A DNA stretch of 61,736 nt, from contig CAMREV010000006.1 in NCBI GenBank assembly GCA_947041945.1, positions 1 to 61,736 of the forward strand. The letters run 5' to 3'. The position numbers and the translations under genes are program-made. The notes beneath the pieces were generated by a model. That model ran no database searches. It saw only the letters and a list, made by a program, of their open reading frames with translations, and was not told the origin of the DNA. This document shows, piece after piece, positions 695 to 21,942 of the stretch. Numbering within the stretch: the stretch's first letter is position 1; every line of letters starts with the position of its first letter. Source of the DNA: an uncultured Mycoplasmataceae bacterium. GTDB taxonomy: Bacteria > Bacillota_I > Bacilli_A > Mycoplasmatales > Mycoplasmoidaceae.

Positions 695-1984
695 ATGAAA
701 ATAGTTTTAAATGAAAATGATTTTATAGATTTTAAAATGGATAAAGGGGCAATATTAGTTGGTCCTAATTCAACAGGAAAATCTACTATTTTGAACAGAA
801 TTTCTAAAAATAAAAAAGTAAAAATAGAAATTAATAAAAAAAAGGAAGAATATATAGTTAAAAAAATAACATCAGAAACATTCCAAAAGGATAATTTTGA
901 TGGATTAAAATCTACAAATTCAAAAATTTTAAAAAATAAAATTGAATTAATATAAAAAGAAAATCTTTCCAAAGAAAAGCTAAATCCTTTATTGGAAAAA
1001 GAGCATGAAGAAATAAAAAATTTTTTGAAAAAAGAAAATAAAATAGATATATATGGAAGTGGAATAGATATTGAATATAGTTATGAGATAAATTTTAATC
1101 TTGATTTAAAATTAAAAATAAAACTTAATGATAGATGATATGAAATTGATGAAGCTTCTACAGGTGTAAAAATATTAATATGCTTTTTAATAAATGAAAT
1201 AAATGACACTAAAAATACTGATAAAATTATATATTTATTTGATGAAATAGATGCATTTTTGCATCCACAATGAATTGATTTAATTTGTAAATTAATTTTT
1301 GAAATTACTAAATCAGAAAATTCAAAATTTATTTTAATTACTCATAACCCTCTATTTCTCTCTAAATTAATTAAAAAATATTTTAAATTAATATCTTTTA
1401 TTGAAATGGGAGAAAATCCTAATAATGCTAAAATATTATCATTAAACTGAGAAGAAATAATTACAAATGTAAAAAATGAATTAAATACTAAACCTAAATA
1501 TTTTGAATTAACTGAAGAAAACTTTAGTGATTTATATATAGTAAATTACATTACTTCTTTTTTATTAAGTAATATTTGTAGAATTTTCTTTGATAATAAT
1601 TTGGTTTTTGTCGAAGGGATGGTAGAAGAAATTTATTTTAATAATCTAGACAAAAACTATAATGTTATTCAGACAGGTGGTTTCCATCAATTTCCTCTAA
1701 TGAAGTATATTTTAGATGAATTAATGAGAAATACTAAATATTCTAAAAAAATAAAATTCATTATTGATAATGACAAAAAGAAGTATTGCAATTATGTTTT
1801 TAATTTAATAAATGATGATGAAAAATATAATATCTATAAAATGGAGGAAGATTTTGATATTTTTTTAGGAAAAAATAAAAAAATCCCCTCTTATGAAAAA
1901 ATCCCAAATGTTTTGTCAGTTATTTCAAATACAAAAAATAATATAGACGAAAAAGAAAAATTAATTGAATTTTTAGATAAATAA
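695..1984 (+). pseudogene. OLD-family-like ATPase/TOPRIM nuclease gene, interrupted by in-frame TAA
   Basis: One frame carries all hallmarks of an OLD (overcoming lysogenization defect) type ABC ATPase plus TOPRIM nuclease. Walker A GPNSTGKST is at residues 23-31, an STG signature-like motif follows, Walker B is YLFDEIDAF near 1236-1262, the switch His is in LITHNP near 1334-1351, and the TOPRIM motifs are FVEGM near 1607 and FIIDNDK near 1763. The frame is cut by a genuine TAA at 953-955, after which coding-like sequence goes straight on in the same frame. After the TAA at 1982-1984 it again continues 24 codons (FPLYFSIEHELYLQ) to a TAA at 2057. The insert domain between Walker A and the signature is very short, so material is also missing there. 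OLD proteins are known anti-phage nucleases. This copy is probably inactivated, unless it is expressed as two pieces or a stop is a sequencing error. Confidence 0.72.
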
Positions 1985-2183
1985 TTTCCCCTATATTTCT
2001 CAATAGAACATGAATTATATTTGCAAGAACAGAAATCAATAAAATTAAGTGTAAGTTAATTTAATAAGCAAAGTTAATAGGTTCTTATGCAATTGTTTCT
2101 ATAAGATTTTTTTAAAATCTAAATGGGGAACTGCTACTTATGGAACTGCTTTTAAATTTATTTTAATATGATTTAATTTCAAT
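1985..2183. other. Degenerate non-coding stretch after the OLD-like gene
   Basis: The first 75 bases extend the frame of the OLD-like gene beyond its second in-frame stop, to a TAA at 2057-2059. From 2055 another frame is open for about 40 codons (it includes KWGTATYGTAF near 2121-2153) but has no start codon or ribosome binding site and matches nothing I recognise. I read the stretch as decayed coding DNA rather than as a gene. Confidence 0.4.
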
Positions 2184-2232
2184 AAAAAGAAGCATTATAT
2201 GTATTTTAAAAATACATATAATGCTTCTTTTT
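2184..2232. terminator. Long perfect inverted repeat, probable bidirectional terminator
   Basis: A 24-base arm (2184-2207) is followed, after a single A, by its exact reverse complement (2209-2232). The outer ends are A-rich on the left and T-rich on the right, so a transcript from either strand would end in a stable hairpin followed by U residues. It sits between the plus-strand OLD-like gene and the minus-strand PemK-like ORF, where a shared terminator is expected. A 24-bp perfect stem is long for a mollicute terminator. Confidence 0.7.
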
Positions 2233-2242
2233 AGGTTTTAAA

Positions 2243-2922: not shown

Positions 2923-4479
2923 ATGAGCAAAAGAGAACAAGAAAGACAACAACTTTATAGTACTATTTGAGGTATTGCAAATAAATTAAGAGGTTCTATT
3001 GATGGTTGAGATTTCAAACAATATGTCCTTGGAATTATTTTCTATCGTTACATATCAGAAAACTTGCTTAACTATATTAATGAAGGCGAACATAAAAGCG
3101 GCAATAAAAATTTCGATTATATAAAATTAACTGATAAAGAATCTCAAAAAATTAAAGAAGACATAATTAAATCAAAAGGTTTTTTTATTTTACCTAGTGA
3201 ACTATTTGAAAATGTATTTAAAAAAGCAGAACATGATGAAAATCTGAATACTACTTTAGAAAACATATTTAAAAATATAGAAGCTTCAGCAAATGGAACA
3301 AAAAGTGATGAAGACTTTAGAGGACTTTTTGAAGACATTGATGTTAATAACAAAAAGCTAGGTTCAACTGTTAAAGAAAGAAATAAGAAACTATTAGCTT
3401 TACTTGAAGGTGTCAATGAAATGAAACTTGGAAATTATCAAGATAATACTATTGATGCATTTGGCGATGCTTATGAATTCTTAATGGGAATGTATGCATC
3501 AGAGGCTGGAAAAAGTGGTGGTGAATATTTTACACCACAAGAAGTTTCTGAATTACTTGCAAGAATAACTATAGTTGGCAAAAAAAAGATAGGTAAAGTT
3601 TATGATCCAACCGTTGGCTCTGGCTCTTTACTTCTAAAGTTTGCAAAAATTTTAGGAAAAAAGAATATTCAAGGTTTTTATGGCCAAGAAAAAAATCTAA
3701 CTACATACAATTTGTGTAGAATAAATATGTTTTTACATGACATAAGTTATGAAGATTTCAATATAAAGCATGGGGATACTTTGCTTGAACCATTACATTT
3801 AAATGAAATACCATTTGAAGCTATAGTTTCAAATCCTCCCTATTCAATAAATTGAGAAGGTAAAAAAAATGCTACATTAATTAATGATCCAAGATTCTCT
3901 CCAGCAGGAATACTAGCTCCAGAATCAAAGGCTGATTTTGCCTTTATTATGCATTCTCTTTCTCATTTAGCTCCAAATGGAGTTGCAGCTATTGTTTGTT
4001 TTCCAGGAATTTTATATAGATCAGGAGCTGAACAAAAAATTAGAAAATACTTAGTAGATAATAATTTTATTGATTGCATTATACAGTTACCATCTAATTT
4101 ATTTTTTGGTACAAGCATTGCAACATGTATTATGGTTTTAAAAAAGAATAAAGAAAATGTTAATGATATTTTATTTATTGATGCTTCAAAAGAATGTAAT
4201 AAAGTTACAAATAGTAATAAATTATCTGAAACTAACATTGAAACAATATTAAATACTTTTAAAGACAGAAAAGAAAAAAAGCATTTTTCAAAAAGAGTTA
4301 AGATAAATGAAATAGCAGAGCAAGATTACTCATTAAGCGTTAACACATATGTTGAAATAGAAGATAAAAAAGAAATTATTGATATAAAAGTTTTAAATAA
4401 AGAAATAGATGAGATTACAAAAAAATGTGATTCATTAAGAAAAGATATAAAAAAAATAATAAAAGAAATAGAAGGTTAA
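2923..4479 (+). CDS. hsdM: Type I restriction-modification system, methyltransferase subunit HsdM
   Basis: This subunit of 518 residues methylates adenine within the type I complex M2S (or R2M2S). The N-terminal helical domain begins with the typical WGIANKLRGSIDGWDFKQYVLG. The SAM-binding motif DPTVGSGSLL is near residues 228-237 and the catalytic N6-adenine motif IV NPPY is near residue 304. The C-terminus ends in a lysine-rich coiled helix that normally docks HsdS. Start: ATG 2923, with AGGG eight bases upstream. It leads an hsdM-hsdS-hsdR operon with 1- and 3-base gaps. Several TGA codons encode Trp. All key motifs are intact, so the methylase looks functional. Confidence 0.95.
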
Positions 4480-5734: not shown

Positions 5735-8700
5735 ATGACTAAAAAATATGATGTTCTTTTATCAAAAGAAGAAGGTACAGTTGTTTTTGAATTTGAACCA
5801 ACAAAAAGAAGAAAAACAACTTATCAAAGTGAAAAAGAATTAGAAGATGAATTTATTAATAACCTTAAAAGTCAAGGTTATGAGTTTTTAAATATTCATC
5901 AAGAAAAAGAATTAAAAATAAATTTAAGAAAACAAATTGAAAAACTTAACAACTTTAAATTTAATGATGATGAGTGAGATAGGTTTTTTACTCAAGAAAT
6001 AGCAAATAAAAACTTTTCATTAATAGATAAGACTACTAGAATTCAAAATGATGAGATAATTAATTTTTCTACTGATCAAAACAAAACATTTAATATTAAA
6101 TTAATTGATAAAAAGAATCCTCAAAATAATATATTACAGGTAATTAATCAATATGAAACTAAGAGGGGCACTTACAATAATAGATATGATGTAACTATTC
6201 TTGTAAATGGTCTTCCACTAATCCATGTAGAACTTAAAAGAAGAGGAGTTAATCTTAAAGAAGCTTTTAATCAAATAGAAAGATATAAAAGAGAAAGTTT
6301 TTGAGCTGATAGTGGTTTATTTGAATATGTGCAACTATATGTAATTTCAAATGGAACAAAAACGAAATACTACACAAACACGACTAGAGAAGATAGTATT
6401 AATGAAAAAGTTATTAATAGCAATAAAAATAATAATAGTAATGATATTAATACCTTTGAATTTACATCATATTGATCAGATTCTTTTAACAAACCAATTA
6501 AAGACTTAGTAGACTTTACTAAAACATTTTTTGCAAGACACACAATCTTAAATGTCCTTACAAAATATTGTGTTTTTACTGTTGAAAATAAATTATTAGT
6601 AATGAGACCTTATCAAATTGTTGGAACAGAAAAAATTATAAATAAAGTTAAATCAGTATATTTAAACAAAATTTGAGGAAAAGAAAATTCTGGCGGTTAC
6701 ATTTGACATACAACAGGTAGTGGAAAAACTTTAACATCATTCAAAACTGCTCAATTATTAAATGATGATCCTGAAATAGAAAAAATTTTATTTGTTGTTG
6801 ATAGACGAGATTTAGATTATCAAACAATCAAAGAATATAATAATTATGAAAAAGATTGTGTGAGTTCAAATGATTCATCAAATGAATTATTAAAAAAACT
6901 TATTAGTAAAGAAAGAAATGACAAAATAATCGTTACAACAATTCAAAAATTAAGTAACCTTGTTAAAAAATTAAAATCTAACGAAATATATAATAAGAAA
7001 ACTGTAATGATTTTTGATGAGTGTCATCGTTCTCAATTCGGAACAATGCATATTGAAATTAGAAAAAAATTCAAAATGTTCTCTATCTTTGGTTTTACTG
7101 GAACACCAATATTTGCTGAAAGCAATATTAAGGGCAACGATCAAATTAGAACAACTGAACAAGTTTTTGGTGTTAAATTACACACATATAATATCCAAGA
7201 TGCAATTAGAGATGATAATGTATTACCTTTCAGAATTGATTACTATAAAACAATGAAGACAAAAGATGAAATTGATGACAAAAAAGTTTTAAGTATTGAT
7301 CAAGAAAAAGCATACAATGATCCAAAGAGAATTGCAATGATTAGTGAATATATTTTAGATCACTTTGATTACAAAACTAAAAGAGATTTAATTTCAGATA
7401 TTAGCACCAATCGTAAAAAAGGATTTAATTCACTTTTTGCAACATCATCAATTCTTGCTGCAAAACTTTACTATGCAAAACTTAAAGAATTAAATGAAGC
7501 AAAGGAAAAGAAAATTAACATTGCTTTAATCTATAGTTTTTCTCAGAATGAGGATTTATCAAATGGTGATTTTAATGATGAAGATTTTGATAACAATAAA
7601 CTAGATGAATCTTCAAAAGACTTTTTAGAAAAAGCAATTCAAGATTACAATAAAACTTTTGGAACAAGCTTTGATACATCAAGTGATAAATTTCAAAATT
7701 ATTATAAAGATCTTGCAATGAGAACAAAAAATAAAGAAGTAGATTTACTAATTGTGGTAAATATGTTTTTAACAGGATTTGATGCAAAAACATTAAATAC
7801 TTTATGAGTAGATAAAAACTTAAAACTTCATGGTTTAATGCAAGCCTTTTCAAGAACAAATAGAATCTTTAATAGTGTCAAAACATTTGGATATATTTAT
7901 TCTTTTAGAGATCTTAGAAAAGAAGTAGATGAAACTATGAAACTTTATGGAGATAAAGATGCTAGTGGTGTAGTATTCTTAAAATCTTTTAAAGATTATT
8001 ATGATGGATATGAAGATGATAATGGAGAATTTCAAACTGGTTACAAAGATTTGGTAGAAGAATTTAAAAAGAAATTTAAATTACCATTGGCTATATCTAG
8101 TGAAACTGCTAAAAAAGAATTTATTGTATTATTTAATAAAATATTAAAAATGGAAAACATTCTTAATTCATTTGATGAATTTAATAAACTAAAATTAATT
8201 ACAGAAGCAGAAGGTCAAGACTACAGAAGTGAATATCATACTATTAGAGAAGAAATTCAAAAATACAAAGATGAAAACCCTAAAGAAGTTATTAATGATG
8301 ATATTGAATTTGAACTTGAATTAATTAAACAAATAGAAATTAACTTTGATTACATTTTTCATTTGATTTCTAATTCTTCTGAAATAAATGAAAAAGGATT
8401 CAATGAAAAGATTCATAGAATTGTTGATTCAAGTACAATGCTTAGAAATAAAAAAGATTTAATAGATCAATTTATAAATGCATTTAAAGAAAAATTAGTA
8501 AATAAAGATGGTTGAAAAAACTTTTTTGAAACTAAAAGAAAAGAAGAATTAATGAAACTTATTGAAGATTATAAATTAGATTTTGAAGAAACAATAAGAC
8601 TTTCAGAAGACATATATGAAAGAGGTGAAATTAAATATTCAGAAATTGATAGAATAATGCCACCCACAAGTAGATTTAATCCTGAAAAAGGAAATGAAAA

Positions 8701-8767
8701 AGAAACTATTAAAAATAAAATTAAAAAAGATATCGAAAAACACATTGAAAGATTCACTATAACTTAA
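5735..8767 (+). CDS. hsdR: Type I restriction enzyme, motor/nuclease subunit HsdR
   Basis: Protein of 1010 residues that translocates DNA and cleaves it in the type I R2M2S complex. An N-terminal PD-(D/E)xK nuclease is shown by [19 protein letters not shown] (ExK near residue 164) and the following QIERYK, the usual HsdR QxxxY motif. The superfamily 2 motor follows: Walker [12 protein letters not shown] near residues 324-334, DEAD-type motif [10 protein letters not shown] near 425, motif [10 protein letters not shown] near 450, and motif [12 protein letters not shown] near 702. The C-terminal helical region runs to the end. Start ATG 5735 comes three bases after the hsdS stop. No truncation is seen; nuclease and ATPase motifs look intact. 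Confidence 0.95.
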
Positions 8768-8829: not shown

Positions 8830-10524
8830 ATGTCATATATTTCTGAATGTACACATAAAATAGAAATTTCAGAAGATGATGTTAATTTAAAGAATGCATC
8901 AAATTTTTTTCTTCAAAATTTGGAAAATGATTATAAAGAATATATAAATAAATATGATTTAAATTTAAAACATTGAAATAAATTTATTGAAAAAAAACAT
9001 GACAAAGTTTCTTTCACCCCTGAGTTTTATAATAAAAAATCTCCCTTAACATTAATAAATTCTAGTTGAGGTAATGGCAAGACTTATTTTATAGAGAACT
9101 TAGGAAAAAATATATCGGAAAACAAAGAAGATTCTTTTTTTAAAAATTTTATAATAATTGATTTGTGAAACTATTTTGAATCAGATAATATTGTACATGA
9201 AGTATGCAATTTTTTATTTGCTGTTTTAGCATCTTTAAATGATAAATTTAAAAATAAATCAAAAAGTTTAGCAAGAAAATTTAAAAATGATGTTCTTATA
9301 CCAAAAATAAATAATCGTTATAGCATAGATATTAAAATACAAAATAAAAATTATGATAGTTTTAAAAAAATTAAATTTGATAATACTATTATAGTTTTTG
9401 ATAATCTTGAAAGAATTGGTGAAAGTAAATGGGAAGTTATAAAATTAATCCAAAAACTTTCAAGAATAAAAAATTTTGTTTTTATTCTTACAATGGATGC
9501 AGATAAAATAAATGATAATAGTGATAATAGTGATAATTTTGAAAATCGTATTGAAAAATTTATTGATATGCCAACATATATATTGAAGCCAAACTATTCA
9601 TCTCTTTTAGTAAATTTGGGAATAGAAAAAGAAATTGCCAAAAAGATAAGTCATATGTTTAATCTTAGTATCACTAAAAAAACTTTTTCAACAAGAGAAT
9701 TAAAAAAAATTTTTGAAAAACATAAAATTCATGAAAAATCTAAAGAAATAGGCGGGTTGAGAACACTAATTTTTTTGAGAAATAATTTTTTAAAAAGCGG
9801 TGATTATTTTTTTAAATGACTTAATGAAAAAGAAATTGAAATAATTAATGATTTTTTTTCTAATTCTTTTAATATTTATAAAAGTTTTAGGGACAAATAT
9901 ACATTATTATTTGATAATGGATCATTTTCTTATTTCTGAAATAATTTTAAAAATTTAATAAATAGAGTATATGAAATTGAAAAAAAAGAACCAAACTCAG
10001 ATATAAAAAATAATGTAGAAAATATTTTTATGAATTTCTCAAATAATAATATAAAAAAATTTTATTCATCAAAAGAAATTAAAAAAAATCTCAAAGATAT
10101 CAATAGTTTTGTAAATGAAAATAATGAAGAAATTTTAAAAAGAAAAAAATCCTTAGAATTGCTTAAAGAATCTATTGAAAAAGTATTTAAAAAAAATAAA
10201 AAACCCAGCATTGAAAAAAAAATTAATTCAATTAATATACTATTGGATGAATTGAATGAAATTCAAAATAAAATTGATAAAACACTTCCTATTTTTAAAG
10301 ATTTTTCATCTAAGGCAGAACCTATATTAAAAAATTTTGGTAGTGAAATATTTGAATCTGATGATATTTTAGAATACATTAATTCTTTGGGTCTTGAATT
10401 ATTTTTTAAAATTGATAACCATAGTCAAAGCGAAGAAGAGTGAATTAAATCAAAAATTAGGCACATTTTTCATCAAGAATTTAATTCATTTATTCAGTTT
10501 CTTGAAAAAAATTTATATGAATAA
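8830..10524 (+). CDS. KAP-like P-loop NTPase (defence island)
   Basis: Soluble protein of 564 residues. Walker A is LINSSWGNGKTYFIE, with the catalytic Lys near residue 84. Walker B is IIVFDNLERIG, with Asp near 191, followed by KLIQKLSRIKNFVFILTMDADKI. This W-G-x-GKT plus xxDNLER arrangement is that of the KAP family of STAND-like P-loop NTPases, which in bacteria includes the F-plasmid phage-exclusion protein PifA. Unlike many KAP proteins, no clear transmembrane pair is inserted. The C-terminal third (about residues 400-510) is Lys/Glu-rich and likely coiled coil. It follows hsdR by 62 bp on the same strand and is clearly paralogous to the minus-strand gene at 10858-12813. An anti-phage role is inferred from location and family. 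Confidence 0.72.
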
Positions 10525-10600
10525 CTTTTAAACAAATAATCTTGAATAAATACCCATACATAATTTAATAATGGTTAGATAATTTTTAGAATATAAATAT

Positions 10601-10861
10601 ATGAATAATTCTTTAGTAAGAACGAGATATGCACCATCACCAACAGGCTTGTTTCATATTGACGAATCAATAACCACACTATTTAGATGTATCTTTGCAA
10701 AAGCATATAGAAGAAATTTTAAAATTTAAAGAAGAAAATCCAAAAGAACCAATCAATTTATAAATGAAATTAATGCATATGATACAAATAAAAATAATTG
10801 ATCTCATTTCTTTAAAAATAAAAGATATGAAGAATTAATAAAAATATTTGAAATATATTAA
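10601..10861 (+). pseudogene. Relic of the 5' end of gltX, fused to unknown sequence
   Basis: The first 42 codons are a decayed copy of the start of gltX at 14390. The peptide [15 protein letters not shown] and the later IFAKAY are identical to the intact gene, including a 23-base identical DNA stretch (10625-10647 against 14414-14436). The HIGG(A) catalytic signature has become HIDES. A TAA ends it at 10727-10729. The same frame then stays open for another 43 codons of unrelated, coding-like sequence (ending YEELIKIFEIY) to a TAA at 10859-10861. The relic occupies most of the 333-bp space between the two convergent KAP-like genes and marks a duplication or insertion boundary. It cannot make a functional synthetase. 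Confidence 0.85.
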
Positions 10862-12813
10862 TTATGGTTATTTTTTATTTTTTCAAATACTATAATTATA
10901 AATTCTTCATTATTTATAATAAGATCCCCACTATATTCTTTTTTATCATATATTTCTTGGTAAAAATTCCATATATTTTTCATTTCATTTTCTGACATAA
11001 ATTTTTTATTTTCTGTAAGAAAAATTGAAATACATTTATTAATTTCAATTGATAGTGTTTTTTCTTTCAAAGAATTTAATGATTTAATTCCCTCTCTTTC
11101 ATCATTTAATAATTTTATATCAAAATCCATTTTTTTTAAATCTTCTTTATATTCTTCTAACACATTTTCTAATTTTTGCACAACATGTTCTTGCACAGAT
11201 AATTTTTCAATTTCTTTTTTTATTTTGGAATTTTTTAATTTATTTATAATTTGATTAGATTCTTCAATTCCAGATTCTGTTTCAACTTTCTTTTCTTCTT
11301 TTTCTTTTCTATCCTTGTTAAGATTTATAATTTGCTCATTTATTTTTTCTATCTTGTTTTTATTATATAAATATATTTCTTTTAAAAAAGACACAATATC
11401 TTTCATTTCTTTTTCTCAATTTCGATTTAAATTATTTCATTTATACATGCCATCAACATAATAAAATTCATTTATTTTCACCATTATTTCACTTCATTTT
11501 TTATTAAGATTATTTCTATATTCTTCATTTCTTAAAATAGCAACTAAAAAACTATCTTTAAATATTATATTTTTTAAATTTAGAGATCAATCATTTAAAA
11601 AAGAGGCATATTTTGAAAATCCACGTATATCTTCTATTATTAATTCATCTATTTTATTTTTGTTTATTTCTACAATAGGATCCCATATTTCTTTTAATGA
11701 GATTAAACCCTTATGCTTGCCTTCATCAAATTTTTCTTTGATATTTAAATGTTTAAATGTTTTTAAAACCTTTCTAACAGACATATTAAATCCGTCAATA
11801 GACTCTATTAAAATATCATTTACTATATTAATATAGTCTTTATTTATTTTAATTTTTTCTAATACTCCCAAATAATCCTGTTCTAATATATAGAAAGGTA
11901 ATTGAATATATTTTTCAATATTCATTTCATAATTTTCATTTTCACCATCATAATCTAAAGAATGTAATTTATTTTTGTTTATTGGAAAAATTAAAATTAA
12001 ATTATTTATCATTGATAATTTTTGAATTATTTTTATTATCATTCATGAATAAGAACCTAACCTTTCTATGTTATCAAAAAAAATCATTGTTAATGGAGGA
12101 TTTTCCATAACAAGACTAATTTTTTCTTTCTCTCTTTCAATTTTATCAATTTCTATATTTTCTCTTTTATTGCCTCTAAATTTACTATAATTATATGAAA
12201 CTGATAATTGGTTCATAAGGTTAGAACTAAATTCAATTGTTCCAGAAAGAGATTTTACATTCAATTTTATCTTCTCAATTATTCAAGATATAAAAGCTAT
12301 TACTTTGTTTTCTTCTTTTCTTTCTTCATCATCTAAAAATATTTTTGCCAATTCATCAATTATTTCATAAATAACATCTTCCGAGTTACAAAATTTTCAA
12401 GTATCAATAATTACAAATTTCTTAAAAAAGAAAGATTCTTCTTTCCCTTTAAGAAACATTTTTCCCATCTCTTCTATAAAGTATGTTTTACCAGTTCCTC
12501 ATGGAGCGTCAATAATAGTTATTGGCGATCTTATTAAAACCTTTTCAGGTGTAAAATGTGCTCTTTTTTTATTTTTTTCTTTTACTGATTTTGACTTCTT
12601 AACAGAATCATTTTTTTGTTCATTTTTAGTTACAAGATTACCTTTTAGAATATTTTCTCATATTTCATCTTCTTTCTTTAGATCTTTTTTGAAATCTTTA
12701 TAATCAATTTCAATTAATTTAATAAAATCTTTAATTTTTTCTTCTAAAGGATCATTAATGCTTATTTTTATTTTATGTGAATCTATTTGATTTCATTTAT
12801 TATTTTTCATCAT
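10858..12813 (-). CDS. KAP-like P-loop NTPase with coiled-coil C-terminus (paralogue of the 8830 gene)
   Basis: Protein of 651 residues on the minus strand, continuous when TGA is Trp. Walker A is IIDAPWGTGKTYFIEEMGK (Lys near residue 109). Walker B is MIFFDNIERLGSYSW (Asp near 247), followed by IIKIIQKLSMINNLILIF. The motifs and spacing mirror the plus-strand gene at 8830-10524 (shared: WGxGKTYFIE, SFF, FDN(L/I)ER, II(K/x)LIQKLS), but the two have diverged strongly. An N-terminal extension of about 90 charged residues is unique to this copy. A long Glu/Lys-rich coiled coil (about residues 480-600) follows the NTPase part. ATG 12813 is preceded by GAAGGAA; a second ATG lies one codon inside (12810). 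Function is inferred to be defence or stress related; the substrate is unknown. Confidence 0.72.
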
Positions 12814-12854: not shown

Positions 12855-12870
12855 ATTTTTTTTTTTAAAT

Positions 12871-12939
12871 ATAAATATTGAATGTATTATCTTGCATATT
12901 CTAATTAATATAGATTTAGTAAATATTCTTAAGATAAAT
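12871..12939 (+). repeat. 69-bp direct repeat, copy A (upstream of membrane protein gene)
   Basis: Bases 12871-12939 align without gaps to 14266-14334, with about nine mismatches in 69 positions by eye. The first 37 bases differ at only three sites. Copy A lies just upstream of the membrane protein gene and copy B upstream of gltX, in the same orientation. It could be a duplicated promoter or leader, or a footprint of the event that also left the gltX relic. Confidence 0.8.
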
Positions 12940-14106: not shown

Positions 14107-14265
14107 TTATTTAATATATTGATATTTTTCTTATTAACATTTACATAATAAATTTACTTATATATTATTCTTAATGAAACAGAAATTTTTTAAAAATGTT
14201 TTCATATAAACAAAACCAATATTTATTATATTTTTAACATTTTTGAAGCAAATAAAATTTTTAAT

Positions 14266-14334
14266 ATAAATATTGAATATATTATCTTACATATTATAAT
14301 TAAGAAGTATTTAATAAATATTTTTAAGATAAAT
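14266..14334 (+). repeat. 69-bp direct repeat, copy B (upstream of gltX)
   Basis: Partner of 12871-12939, same orientation. It occupies part of the 283-bp gap 14107-14389, which otherwise holds only AT-rich sequence and a weak imperfect inverted repeat near 14175-14207. The gap separates the membrane protein gene from gltX and presumably contains the gltX promoter. Confidence 0.8.
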
Positions 14335-14362: not shown

Positions 14363-15885
<1,523 letters not shown>

Positions 15886-15886
<1 letters not shown>

Positions 15887-17073
15887 TGACAAACAAGTTT
15901 ATTAAAGATCCAATTTTTAAGGAAATAGATTTAAATAGAGATCCTATTATTGGTGAATTAATTTCATGTAAGGAATTTCAAAGATTGCAAAACATAATGC
16001 AATTAGGAATTTGTTATAAATTATTTCCAACAGCAATGCATAGTAGATACATTCATTCTCTAGGAGCTTACGAAGTAGCTTCTAGATTTTTAGATGTTAT
16101 TGGTGGTAAGTGTAGTAAGAAACATAAAAGACTTGTTCAAGTGGCTGCACTACTTCATGACTTAGGTCATGGACCACTTTCACATGTATTTGAAAGATTT
16201 GGTGGAAGTCATGAACAATGAACATTAGATATTATTGTTTCTAAGAAATCATCAATTAATAAAGTTTTAAAAAAATACAATATTGATATAGATGAATTAA
16301 TTTTAATTTATCAAAACAAACATCCAATCAAATGATTAAATCAAATCATTTCATCAGATTTAGATGTTGACAGAATTGATTACTTATTAAGAGATTCATA
16401 TTTCATTGGAACTCATTATGGAACAATTGATTTAGATATTCTTTTAAGAAGATTTGAAATAATAAATGATACATTAGTTTTTTCAATAAAAAACTTTAAT
16501 ATGATTGAAAGCTTCTTATTAGGAAGAATCTATATGAACATTGATATTTATGAAAATAAGAATCTAATGGTTTATGAGTGAACATTAGAACTTATATTTA
16601 AAAGATTAGCAGAACTTAAAGATGAATGACCTATTTATGAAAAAAATATTTCAATTTCAAAAAAGTATGACTGAATTTATAAGAAAAAAGAAGTTAGTTT
16701 AGATTTATATTTAGAATTAGATGATTCATCACTAATCACATTTATAAATGAAGTTGCTAATGTGACTAATGATGAATTACTTATATTTATTATTGAGGGT
16801 TTCAAAACACTTAAGAATTTCTCATATACAAAACCAGAAGACTTTGCAAAAAAAGCTAAAATAACTAATAAAGAAGTTCATAAAGACTACATTTACTCAG
16901 AAAAAACAATTAAACATAAAGCTATTTTTTCTAAAGAAGCAGACAAACATATTGTTTTTTATGATAGTGAAAACAATTTAATTGAGTTTAAAAAAACTAA
17001 ATTATTTGATAATTTAGAAAAACAAGTGAATATTTCTAAAATTGTATTGTTAAATAATAATTTTATTGATTAA
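15886..17073 (+). CDS. HD-domain phosphohydrolase (dNTPase/SAMHD1-like)
   Basis: Protein of 395 residues. Metal-binding residues of the HD superfamily are visible: H in MHSRYIHSLGAYEVA, the HD pair in ALLHDLGHGPLSH, and a later D in SSDLDVDRIDYLLRDS. This SDLDVDRIDYLxRDS segment is typical of the dGTPase/SAMHD1-like branch found in Firmicutes. It probably hydrolyses (deoxy)nucleotides in the cytoplasm; the exact substrate is unknown. It overlaps gltX by one base, and rpoE follows after 21 bases, so the three are likely cotranscribed. Confidence 0.88.
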
Positions 17074-21651: not shown

Positions 21652-21942
21652 TTAATATTCATTTGAACCATCTTTTCTATTTCTAGAATTATTGCATTTA
21701 ATATGAACTGCAACAAGGTTATTTAGTTTAGTATTTCCACCTTCTGACTTAGGAACAATTAAATCAACATTTCATGCAAATTCACTATTGTTCAATTTTT
21801 CAATACTGAAGTGAGAACCATATAACATTTTCTTGTTACAACGAATACACATCCTATGGTTTCTCTCGTTACAATCTTGTTTACCACAATCACATTTGGG
21901 AGCTTGCTGTCATATTCTTTCTGTATTTGTTTTGTAAGCCAT
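21652..21942 (-). CDS. HNH-endonuclease-like zinc protein, catalytic His apparently replaced
   Basis: ORF of 96 residues with an AGAGGT ribosome binding site. Cys pairs CDCGKQDC and CIRC form an N-terminal zinc ribbon. The C-terminal half has the HNH layout WNVDLIVPKSEGGNTKLNNLV, ending with KCNNSRNRK, which matches the usual xxVDHIxPxSxGGxxxxxNLxxxxxxCNxxR except that the catalytic D-H pair reads D-L. It may be a non-catalytic DNA- or RNA-binding relative. It lies between the small membrane protein and the hydrolase on the minus strand. Confidence 0.7.

What the first reader, a model, noticed from the sequence alone, without database searches (positions are those of the whole stretch)
8830..12813. 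Convergent pair of diverged KAP-like NTPases beside a type I RM system
Two P-loop NTPases (564 and 651 residues) share WGxGKTYFIE Walker A motifs and FDN(L/I)ERxG Walker B motifs followed by a similar helix, but little else, and face each other directly downstream of hsdMSR. KAP-type NTPases include the phage-exclusion protein PifA, yet neither copy shows the usual membrane insertion, and one has a long coiled coil. Two paralogues with different accessory domains could be a sensor/effector or two-component anti-phage system not described in mollicutes. This is the best candidate here for an undescribed system. Motifs are seen directly; a defence function is inference.
Basis: partly seen in the sequence, partly recalled or inferred. 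Interest (0 to 1): 0.8.

Follow-up and report, generated by a model that had tools for sequence, protein, structure and literature searches.

The report
Two unpaired KAP-type defence-island ATPases
Two related ATP-using proteins sit head-on beside a DNA restriction system in a tiny-genome bacterium; they belong to a patchy, fast-changing mollicute family that elsewhere sits beside anti-phage genes (including the only TIR gene of two genomes), so they are probably defence ATPases, but the head-on pair looks like an accident of recombination and not a two-part system.

Summary
With TGA read as Trp, the window encodes KAP1 (8830-10524 +, 564 aa) and KAP2 (10858-12813 -, 651 aa), convergent, KAP1 62 bp downstream of hsdMSR. 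They share the whole NTPase core (32% over 302 aa, E 3e-35), not only two motifs. They are soluble, diverged KAP-type P-loop ATPases: Pfam hits KAP1, the family profile matches canonical mollicute KAPs (E 1e-14), and the models resemble RdrA weakly. The family occurs in only 13 of 320 sampled genomes of the order.

The idea of a two-component convergent pair is not supported. A decayed gltX/hsdR remnant lies between the genes, they are not sisters in the tree, single copies are common, and the arrangement recurs nowhere. A defence role is supported by context: in two genomes the only TIR gene lies directly upstream of the KAP gene; small HNH-type genes are enriched at KAP loci (5 of 19 within 5 kb, 0.5 expected); other loci hold type I or II RM or GmrSD genes. 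Genome-wide there is no link to hsdR (4/13 against 185/307).

Best reading: solitary KAP ATPases in an RM island, members of a family that elsewhere teams with exchangeable effectors. No function has been tested.

The parts
8830..10524 (+). KAP1, 564-aa KAP-type P-loop NTPase: N-terminal helix, NTPase core about 60-320, helical C-terminus
   Evidence: (KAP_NTPase 35.4 bits, E 9e-9)
9067..9096 (+). KAP1 Walker A WGNGKTYFIE
   Evidence: sequence; G81, G83, K84 invariant in A1
9397..9420 (+). KAP1 Walker B region FDNLERIG
   Evidence: sequence; D191, N192, E194 and G197 invariant in A1
10858..12813 (-). KAP2, 651-aa diverged KAP-type NTPase with longer N-terminus and long helical/coiled-coil C-terminus
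   Evidence: no Pfam KAP hit on its own
12472..12501 (-). KAP2 Walker A WGTGKTYFIE
   Evidence: sequence
12055..12078 (-). KAP2 Walker B region FDNIERLG (F246-G253)
   Evidence: sequence
11011..11265 (-). KAP2 long C-terminal helix, residues 517-601, coiled-coil-like
   Evidence: model, low confidence
10595..10721 (+). decayed 5' fragment of gltX between the two KAP genes
   Evidence: 81.9% identical to 14384-14510; tblastn 70% over 40 aa
10706..10864 (+). decayed hsdR 3' fragments following the gltX fragment
   Evidence: 10706-10748 = 8245-8287 (81%), 10752-10864 = 8466-8578 (72%)
2923..4479 (+). hsdM
   Evidence: NCBIfam TIGR00497, 732 bits
4481..5731 (+). hsdS
5735..8767 (+). hsdR, 62 bp upstream of KAP1
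   Evidence: TIGR00348, 554 bits
12967..14106 (+). DUF1600 protein, hydrophobic, divergent from KAP2
   Evidence: Pfam PF07667
14390..15886 (+). intact gltX; right edge of the island. In relatives an ispE-like gene lies directly upstream, or is fused to gltX

Best explanation
KAP1 and KAP2 are two separately acquired members of a mollicute-restricted family of soluble KAP-type AAA+/P-loop ATPases that live in defence islands. Shown: KAP homology, intact ATPase motifs, no membrane segment, patchy distribution, and defence-gene neighbours in most genomes. Inferred: the ATPase core assembles into a ring or other oligomer, as reported for RdrA and QatA; the fast-evolving helical C-terminus senses an invader cue or holds a partner; ATP-driven assembly licenses an effector encoded by a separate gene. 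That effector would be a TIR protein in two genomes, possibly a small HNH-type protein in others, and possibly the restriction machinery or no partner here. The convergent layout is a by-product of repeated insertion and deletion next to gltX.
For: KAP membership: Pfam and profile-profile 98.3%, E 1.2e-14 against canonical mollicute KAPs. Structure: RdrA among the top PDB matches for both models. Sporadic presence: 13/320 genomes. TIR: the only TIR gene of G188 and of G189 lies directly upstream and co-directional (3-nt gap in G189, 35-nt overlap by longest ORF in G188); both partners have diverged (TIR 37%, KAP 44-46%), so the pairing looks old and kept. Small HNH-type genes: 5 of 19 within 5 kb of a KAP (0.49 expected, P 9e-5), downstream of the orthologous KAP in three Hepatoplasma genomes. 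Type II RM genes follow KAP in G045 and G055; GmrSD and SIR2-like genes lie nearby in G063, G187 and G189. Own KAP3 lies near a type II RM and a second hsdR. QatA, a KAP ATPase of qatABCD, binds DNA and forms heptamers or octamers (PMC13279940); RdrA is a heptameric AAA+ ATPase with a helical C-terminus (PMC9994260).
Against: No phenotype exists for any member. Guilt by association is weak where defence genes cluster anyway. Two loci (G061 between uvrA and manA; G252 between parC-like and recD-like genes) have no obvious defence neighbour. In this genome no TIR gene is found and the only HNH gene is 9 kb away. The HNH-like genes downstream in G045 and G055 seem to have lost the catalytic DH pair. 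Models are low confidence (pLDDT 61 and 57) and Foldseek E-values are marginal. Loci were not compared with matched random loci for all defence families.
Confidence: 0.6

Rival explanations
1. KAP1 and KAP2 form one two-component system, sensor plus effector.
For: Adjacent in one genome; same core with different C-termini. Three Hepatoplasma genomes also carry two copies 3-12 kb apart.
Against: A gltX/hsdR remnant between them; not sisters; single copies elsewhere; Hepatoplasma copies are co-directional, with other genes between.
Confidence: 0.07
2. KAP1 is an accessory subunit of the type I RM system, for example a regulator of HsdR translocation or a second barrier.
For: 62 bp behind hsdR; KAP3 lies 4 kb from the second hsdR and the G308 KAP 0.8 kb from an hsdR. 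hsdR lies within 5 kb at more loci than expected (P 0.009).
Against: KAP genomes carry hsdR less often than others (4/13 against 185/307). G001 and G002 have hsdR and no KAP. A TATAAT-like box lies in the hsdR-KAP1 gap, so a separate promoter is possible.
Confidence: 0.15
3. Housekeeping or selfish-element ATPases with no defence role: DNA-binding, partition-like or prophage-borne genes that pile up in the same variable regions.
For: Two loci lie between housekeeping genes; tail-like genes (recognised by eye only) lie near the Hepatoplasma KAP loci; MuB and ORC are also structural neighbours.
Against: No match in phage, plasmid or viral collections; patchy presence argues against housekeeping; tight TIR-KAP adjacency.
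Confidence: 0.18

Closest known systems
KAP family P-loop NTPases (Pfam PF07693)
   Same: Walker A WGxGKT, the DxW motif after it, Walker B region with D and R, spacing of the core
   Different: Walker B region reads DN(L/I)ER(I/L)G in place of DELDRC; no membrane insertion; own N-terminal helix and fast-evolving C-terminus
RdrA of RADAR
   Same: ATPase core followed by a helical C-terminus; top PDB match of KAP2 and among the top of KAP1
   Different: no detectable sequence match; no RdrB deaminase gene recognised next to it
QatA of qatABCD
   Different: no QatB, QatC (QueC-like) or QatD (TatD) gene recognised beside any copy seen here
PifA of plasmid F
   Same: phage-exclusion protein that the finding assigns to the KAP class (recalled, not tested here)
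   Different: no direct comparison made
MADS mad8 (PADLOC PDLC04140)
   Same: only PADLOC model hitting KAP1 (20.9 bits, E 5e-5)
   Different: weak, covers the core only; no mad1-mad8 cluster
KAP plus Orc/CDC6 neighbourhoods, some with fused TIR (PMC10853773)
   Same: KAP and TIR both occur in one class of predicted defence loci
   Different: there the TIR is fused to an Orc/CDC6 protein; here it is a separate gene directly upstream of KAP

Membership tests
KAP NTPase (PF07693) | profile match above curated cut-off | tested here: met
   KAP1 35.4 bits against 20. KAP2 has no hit alone, but shares the core with KAP1, and the family profile matches canonical KAPs, E 1e-14
KAP NTPase (PF07693) | intact Walker A and Walker B | tested here: met
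   invariant columns in A1
KAP NTPase (PF07693) | transmembrane insertion typical of many members | tested here: not met
   hydropathy maxima at most 1.6 across the family; the insertion is not universal in KAPs (recalled), so this is not taken as defining
RADAR | RdrB deaminase partner | tested here: inconclusive
   none recognised by eye among the ORFs at 1-20 kb; no profile search for it in the genome
RADAR | RdrA-like fold | tested here: inconclusive
   Foldseek E 8e-4 (KAP1) and 1.4e-3 (KAP2), low TM-score
qatABCD | QatB-QatC core beside QatA | tested here: inconclusive
   none recognised by eye in the window neighbourhood or at the KAP loci read; no profile search made
MADS | eight-gene cluster with MTase, HsdS-like and other mad genes | tested here: not met
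   only a weak mad8 hit; the window hsdS hits MAD5 far below its cut-off
Type I RM accessory subunit | constant co-occurrence with hsdR | tested here: not met
   4/13 against 185/307 genomes
Anti-phage defence gene | protection against phage or plasmid | not testable with these tools
   none

The most novel reading that the evidence does not exclude
A modular mollicute defence class in which one soluble KAP ATPase type is wired to interchangeable effectors in trans (TIR, HNH-type nuclease, restriction enzymes). The TIR-KAP two-gene operon of G188 and G189 would be its clearest undescribed form.
Probability: 0.33. Interest if true: 0.65.

Novelty: new variant of a known kind. Interest (0 to 1): 0.45.

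Why it matters
Mollicutes have some of the smallest genomes able to grow alone, yet some keep several copies of this ATPase beside restriction, TIR and nuclease genes. If the family is a sensor ATPase with exchangeable effectors, it would add a KAP counterpart to the STAND-type sensors, and the TIR-KAP pair is small enough to test in one experiment. The window also warns that adjacency alone misleads here, because this island has been cut and rejoined repeatedly.

Tried and rejected
Sequence search of solved structures with the family profile gave only marginal or spurious hits, mostly coiled coils. Tblastn of phages and plasmids, and a viral-contig scan, found no relative. A phylum-wide profile search found no convincing relative outside the order. 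The PF07693 survey has 107 positive genomes, but many weak hits look like other AAA+ proteins, so it was used only to collect canonical KAPs. The idea of a direct hsdR partnership was dropped at genome level. The idea that HNH genes act as effectors was weakened when the genes downstream of KAP in G045 and G055 proved to lack the catalytic DH pair. The HNH profile A5 was built mostly from HNH genes at KAP loci, so its co-occurrence (9/13 against 81/307, P 0.002) is biased and not corrected for relatedness. The hsdR enrichment count used approximate positions for two G308 copies taken as not adjacent.

Full report
Observation. Under code 4 the window encodes KAP1 (8830-10524, +) and KAP2 (10858-12813, -), 564 and 651 residues. 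The proteins share the entire ATPase core, 32% over 302 residues with E 3e-35. KAP1 follows hsdMSR by 62 bp. The region is about 19-20% GC, below most of the window.

What they are. Pfam places KAP1 in KAP_NTPase (35.4 bits, cut-off 20). KAP2 has no KAP hit alone. An alignment of ten family members (A1) matches an alignment of canonical mollicute KAPs over the core with probability 98.3% and E 1.2e-14. No member has a convincing membrane segment. AlphaFold models of KAP1 and KAP2 (pLDDT 61.5 and 57) are fair in the core and poor in the C-terminus. Foldseek returns Pch2, RdrA, ORC and MuB for KAP1 and RdrA first for KAP2, at marginal E-values. These are AAA+/KAP-like ATPases; an exact structural class is not settled.

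Distribution. Of 320 genomes of the order, 13 carry the family at E <= 1e-8. They include five from the family f11, three of which one search identifies by record title as Hepatoplasma species, four from genus g41 of family f7, three scattered ones, and this genome, which has a third copy on contig C4. G001 and G002 of the same genus have none, though both are under 80% complete. No relative was found in phages, plasmids or viral contigs. The three copies in this genome are about 30% identical to each other and sit on long branches.

Why it is not a pair. The 333 bp between the two genes are not plain spacer. They hold the first 40 or so codons of a decayed gltX copy (82% identical to the intact gene) followed by pieces of an hsdR 3' end (72-81%). 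In five relatives gltX follows genes read by eye as yidC, rsmA and ispE, with ispE fused to gltX in two; here that order is broken and an island of hsdMSR, KAP1, KAP2 and a DUF1600 gene lies upstream. The locus has thus been cut and rejoined more than once. KAP1 and KAP2 are not sisters; KAP2 groups with G187/G189 proteins, with the caution that long branches meet there. Convergent KAP pairs were seen nowhere else. Genomes with a single copy exist.

Neighbourhood evidence. In G188 and G189 the KAP gene is directly preceded by a TIR gene on the same strand, with a 3-nt gap in G189 and a 35-nt overlap by longest ORF in G188 (Pfam TIR_2). A whole-genome search shows it is the only TIR gene in each. 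Both TIRs keep a CWKEL motif at the position where TIR enzymes carry the catalytic Glu (position recalled, not tested). The partners have diverged to 37% (TIR) and 44-46% (KAP), which suggests a kept pairing. Small HNH-type genes lie beside KAP genes in Hepatoplasma and G191: 5 of 19 Pfam HNH hits in ten KAP genomes fall within 5 kb of a KAP, 0.49 expected, P 9e-5. In G045 and G055, however, the downstream HNH-like proteins lack the DH pair, so a nuclease role there is doubtful. Type II RM genes follow KAP in G045 and G055; GmrSD genes flank it in G063 and lie near it in G187, and a SIR2-like gene lies near it in G189. Two loci (G061, G252) have only housekeeping neighbours.

The hsd link. Locally, KAP1 sits behind hsdR, KAP3 lies 4 kb from a second hsdR and the G308 KAP 0.8 kb from one. 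Genome-wide the link fails: 4 of 13 KAP genomes carry hsdR against 185 of 307 others. A dedicated type I subunit is therefore unlikely.

Mechanism. Shown: ATPase core, intact motifs, solubility, defence-like contexts. Inferred: oligomeric ATPase with a variable C-terminal sensor or docking region, gating an effector in trans. The analogy rests on RdrA, a heptameric AAA+ ATPase that docks on its partner enzyme (PMC9994260), and QatA, a KAP ATPase that binds DNA and forms heptamers or octamers (PMC13279940). For KAP1 and KAP2 themselves no adjacent effector is seen; they may act alone, with the RM system, or with the HNH gene 9 kb away (21652-21942), which is 51% identical to the HNH neighbour of the G191 KAP.

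Verdict. The TIR-KAP operon found in related genomes is the more interesting lead. The searches made here (PADLOC-DB 2.0, NCBIfam, PMC papers) did not name such a two-gene unit; that is absence from these libraries, not proof of novelty.

Noticed in passing
window 10595-10864: Composite remnant: gltX 5' fragment joined to hsdR 3' fragments, between the two KAP genes; a record of repeated recombination beside gltX.
   Followed up: yes
L068:1424-3863 and L069:8226-10607: TIR gene directly upstream of a KAP gene in two genomes, each the only TIR gene of its genome.
   Followed up: yes
window 21652-21942 (-): Small HNH endonuclease gene, the only PF01844 hit in this genome, 51% identical to the HNH beside the KAP gene of G191 (L065:8548-8823).
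   Followed up: partly
window 12863-12939 and 14258-14334: 77-bp direct repeat, 87% identical, upstream of the DUF1600 gene and upstream of gltX; only two copies in the genome.
   Followed up: partly
window 695-1984: AAA_21/OLD-like ATPase gene interrupted by an in-frame TAA at 953-955; an hsdS-like fragment (33-623) precedes it.
   Followed up: no
window 1979-2233: Sequence repeated at two places near the third KAP (L004:14642-14827 and 16129-16322, 73-78%), followed by a 51-bp near-perfect palindrome at 2183-2233.
   Followed up: no
L004:4629-10609: Lipoprotein genes built of repeated modules, next to the third KAP gene and a type II RM with a fused double methyltransferase.
   Followed up: no
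L025:7243-7566, L026:14018-14344, L028/L029 junction: HNH-like proteins downstream of orthologous Hepatoplasma KAP genes that have lost the catalytic DH pair but keep much of the rest of the motif.
   Followed up: partly
L025:13350-18152 and L027:2394-7150: Genes resembling podovirus tail or knob proteins by eye near the Hepatoplasma KAP loci; not tested with a profile.
   Followed up: no
L056:6748-7443 and L058:221-925: AID/APOBEC-like deaminase genes near a DUF2726 helicase gene in two KAP-bearing genomes.
   Followed up: no
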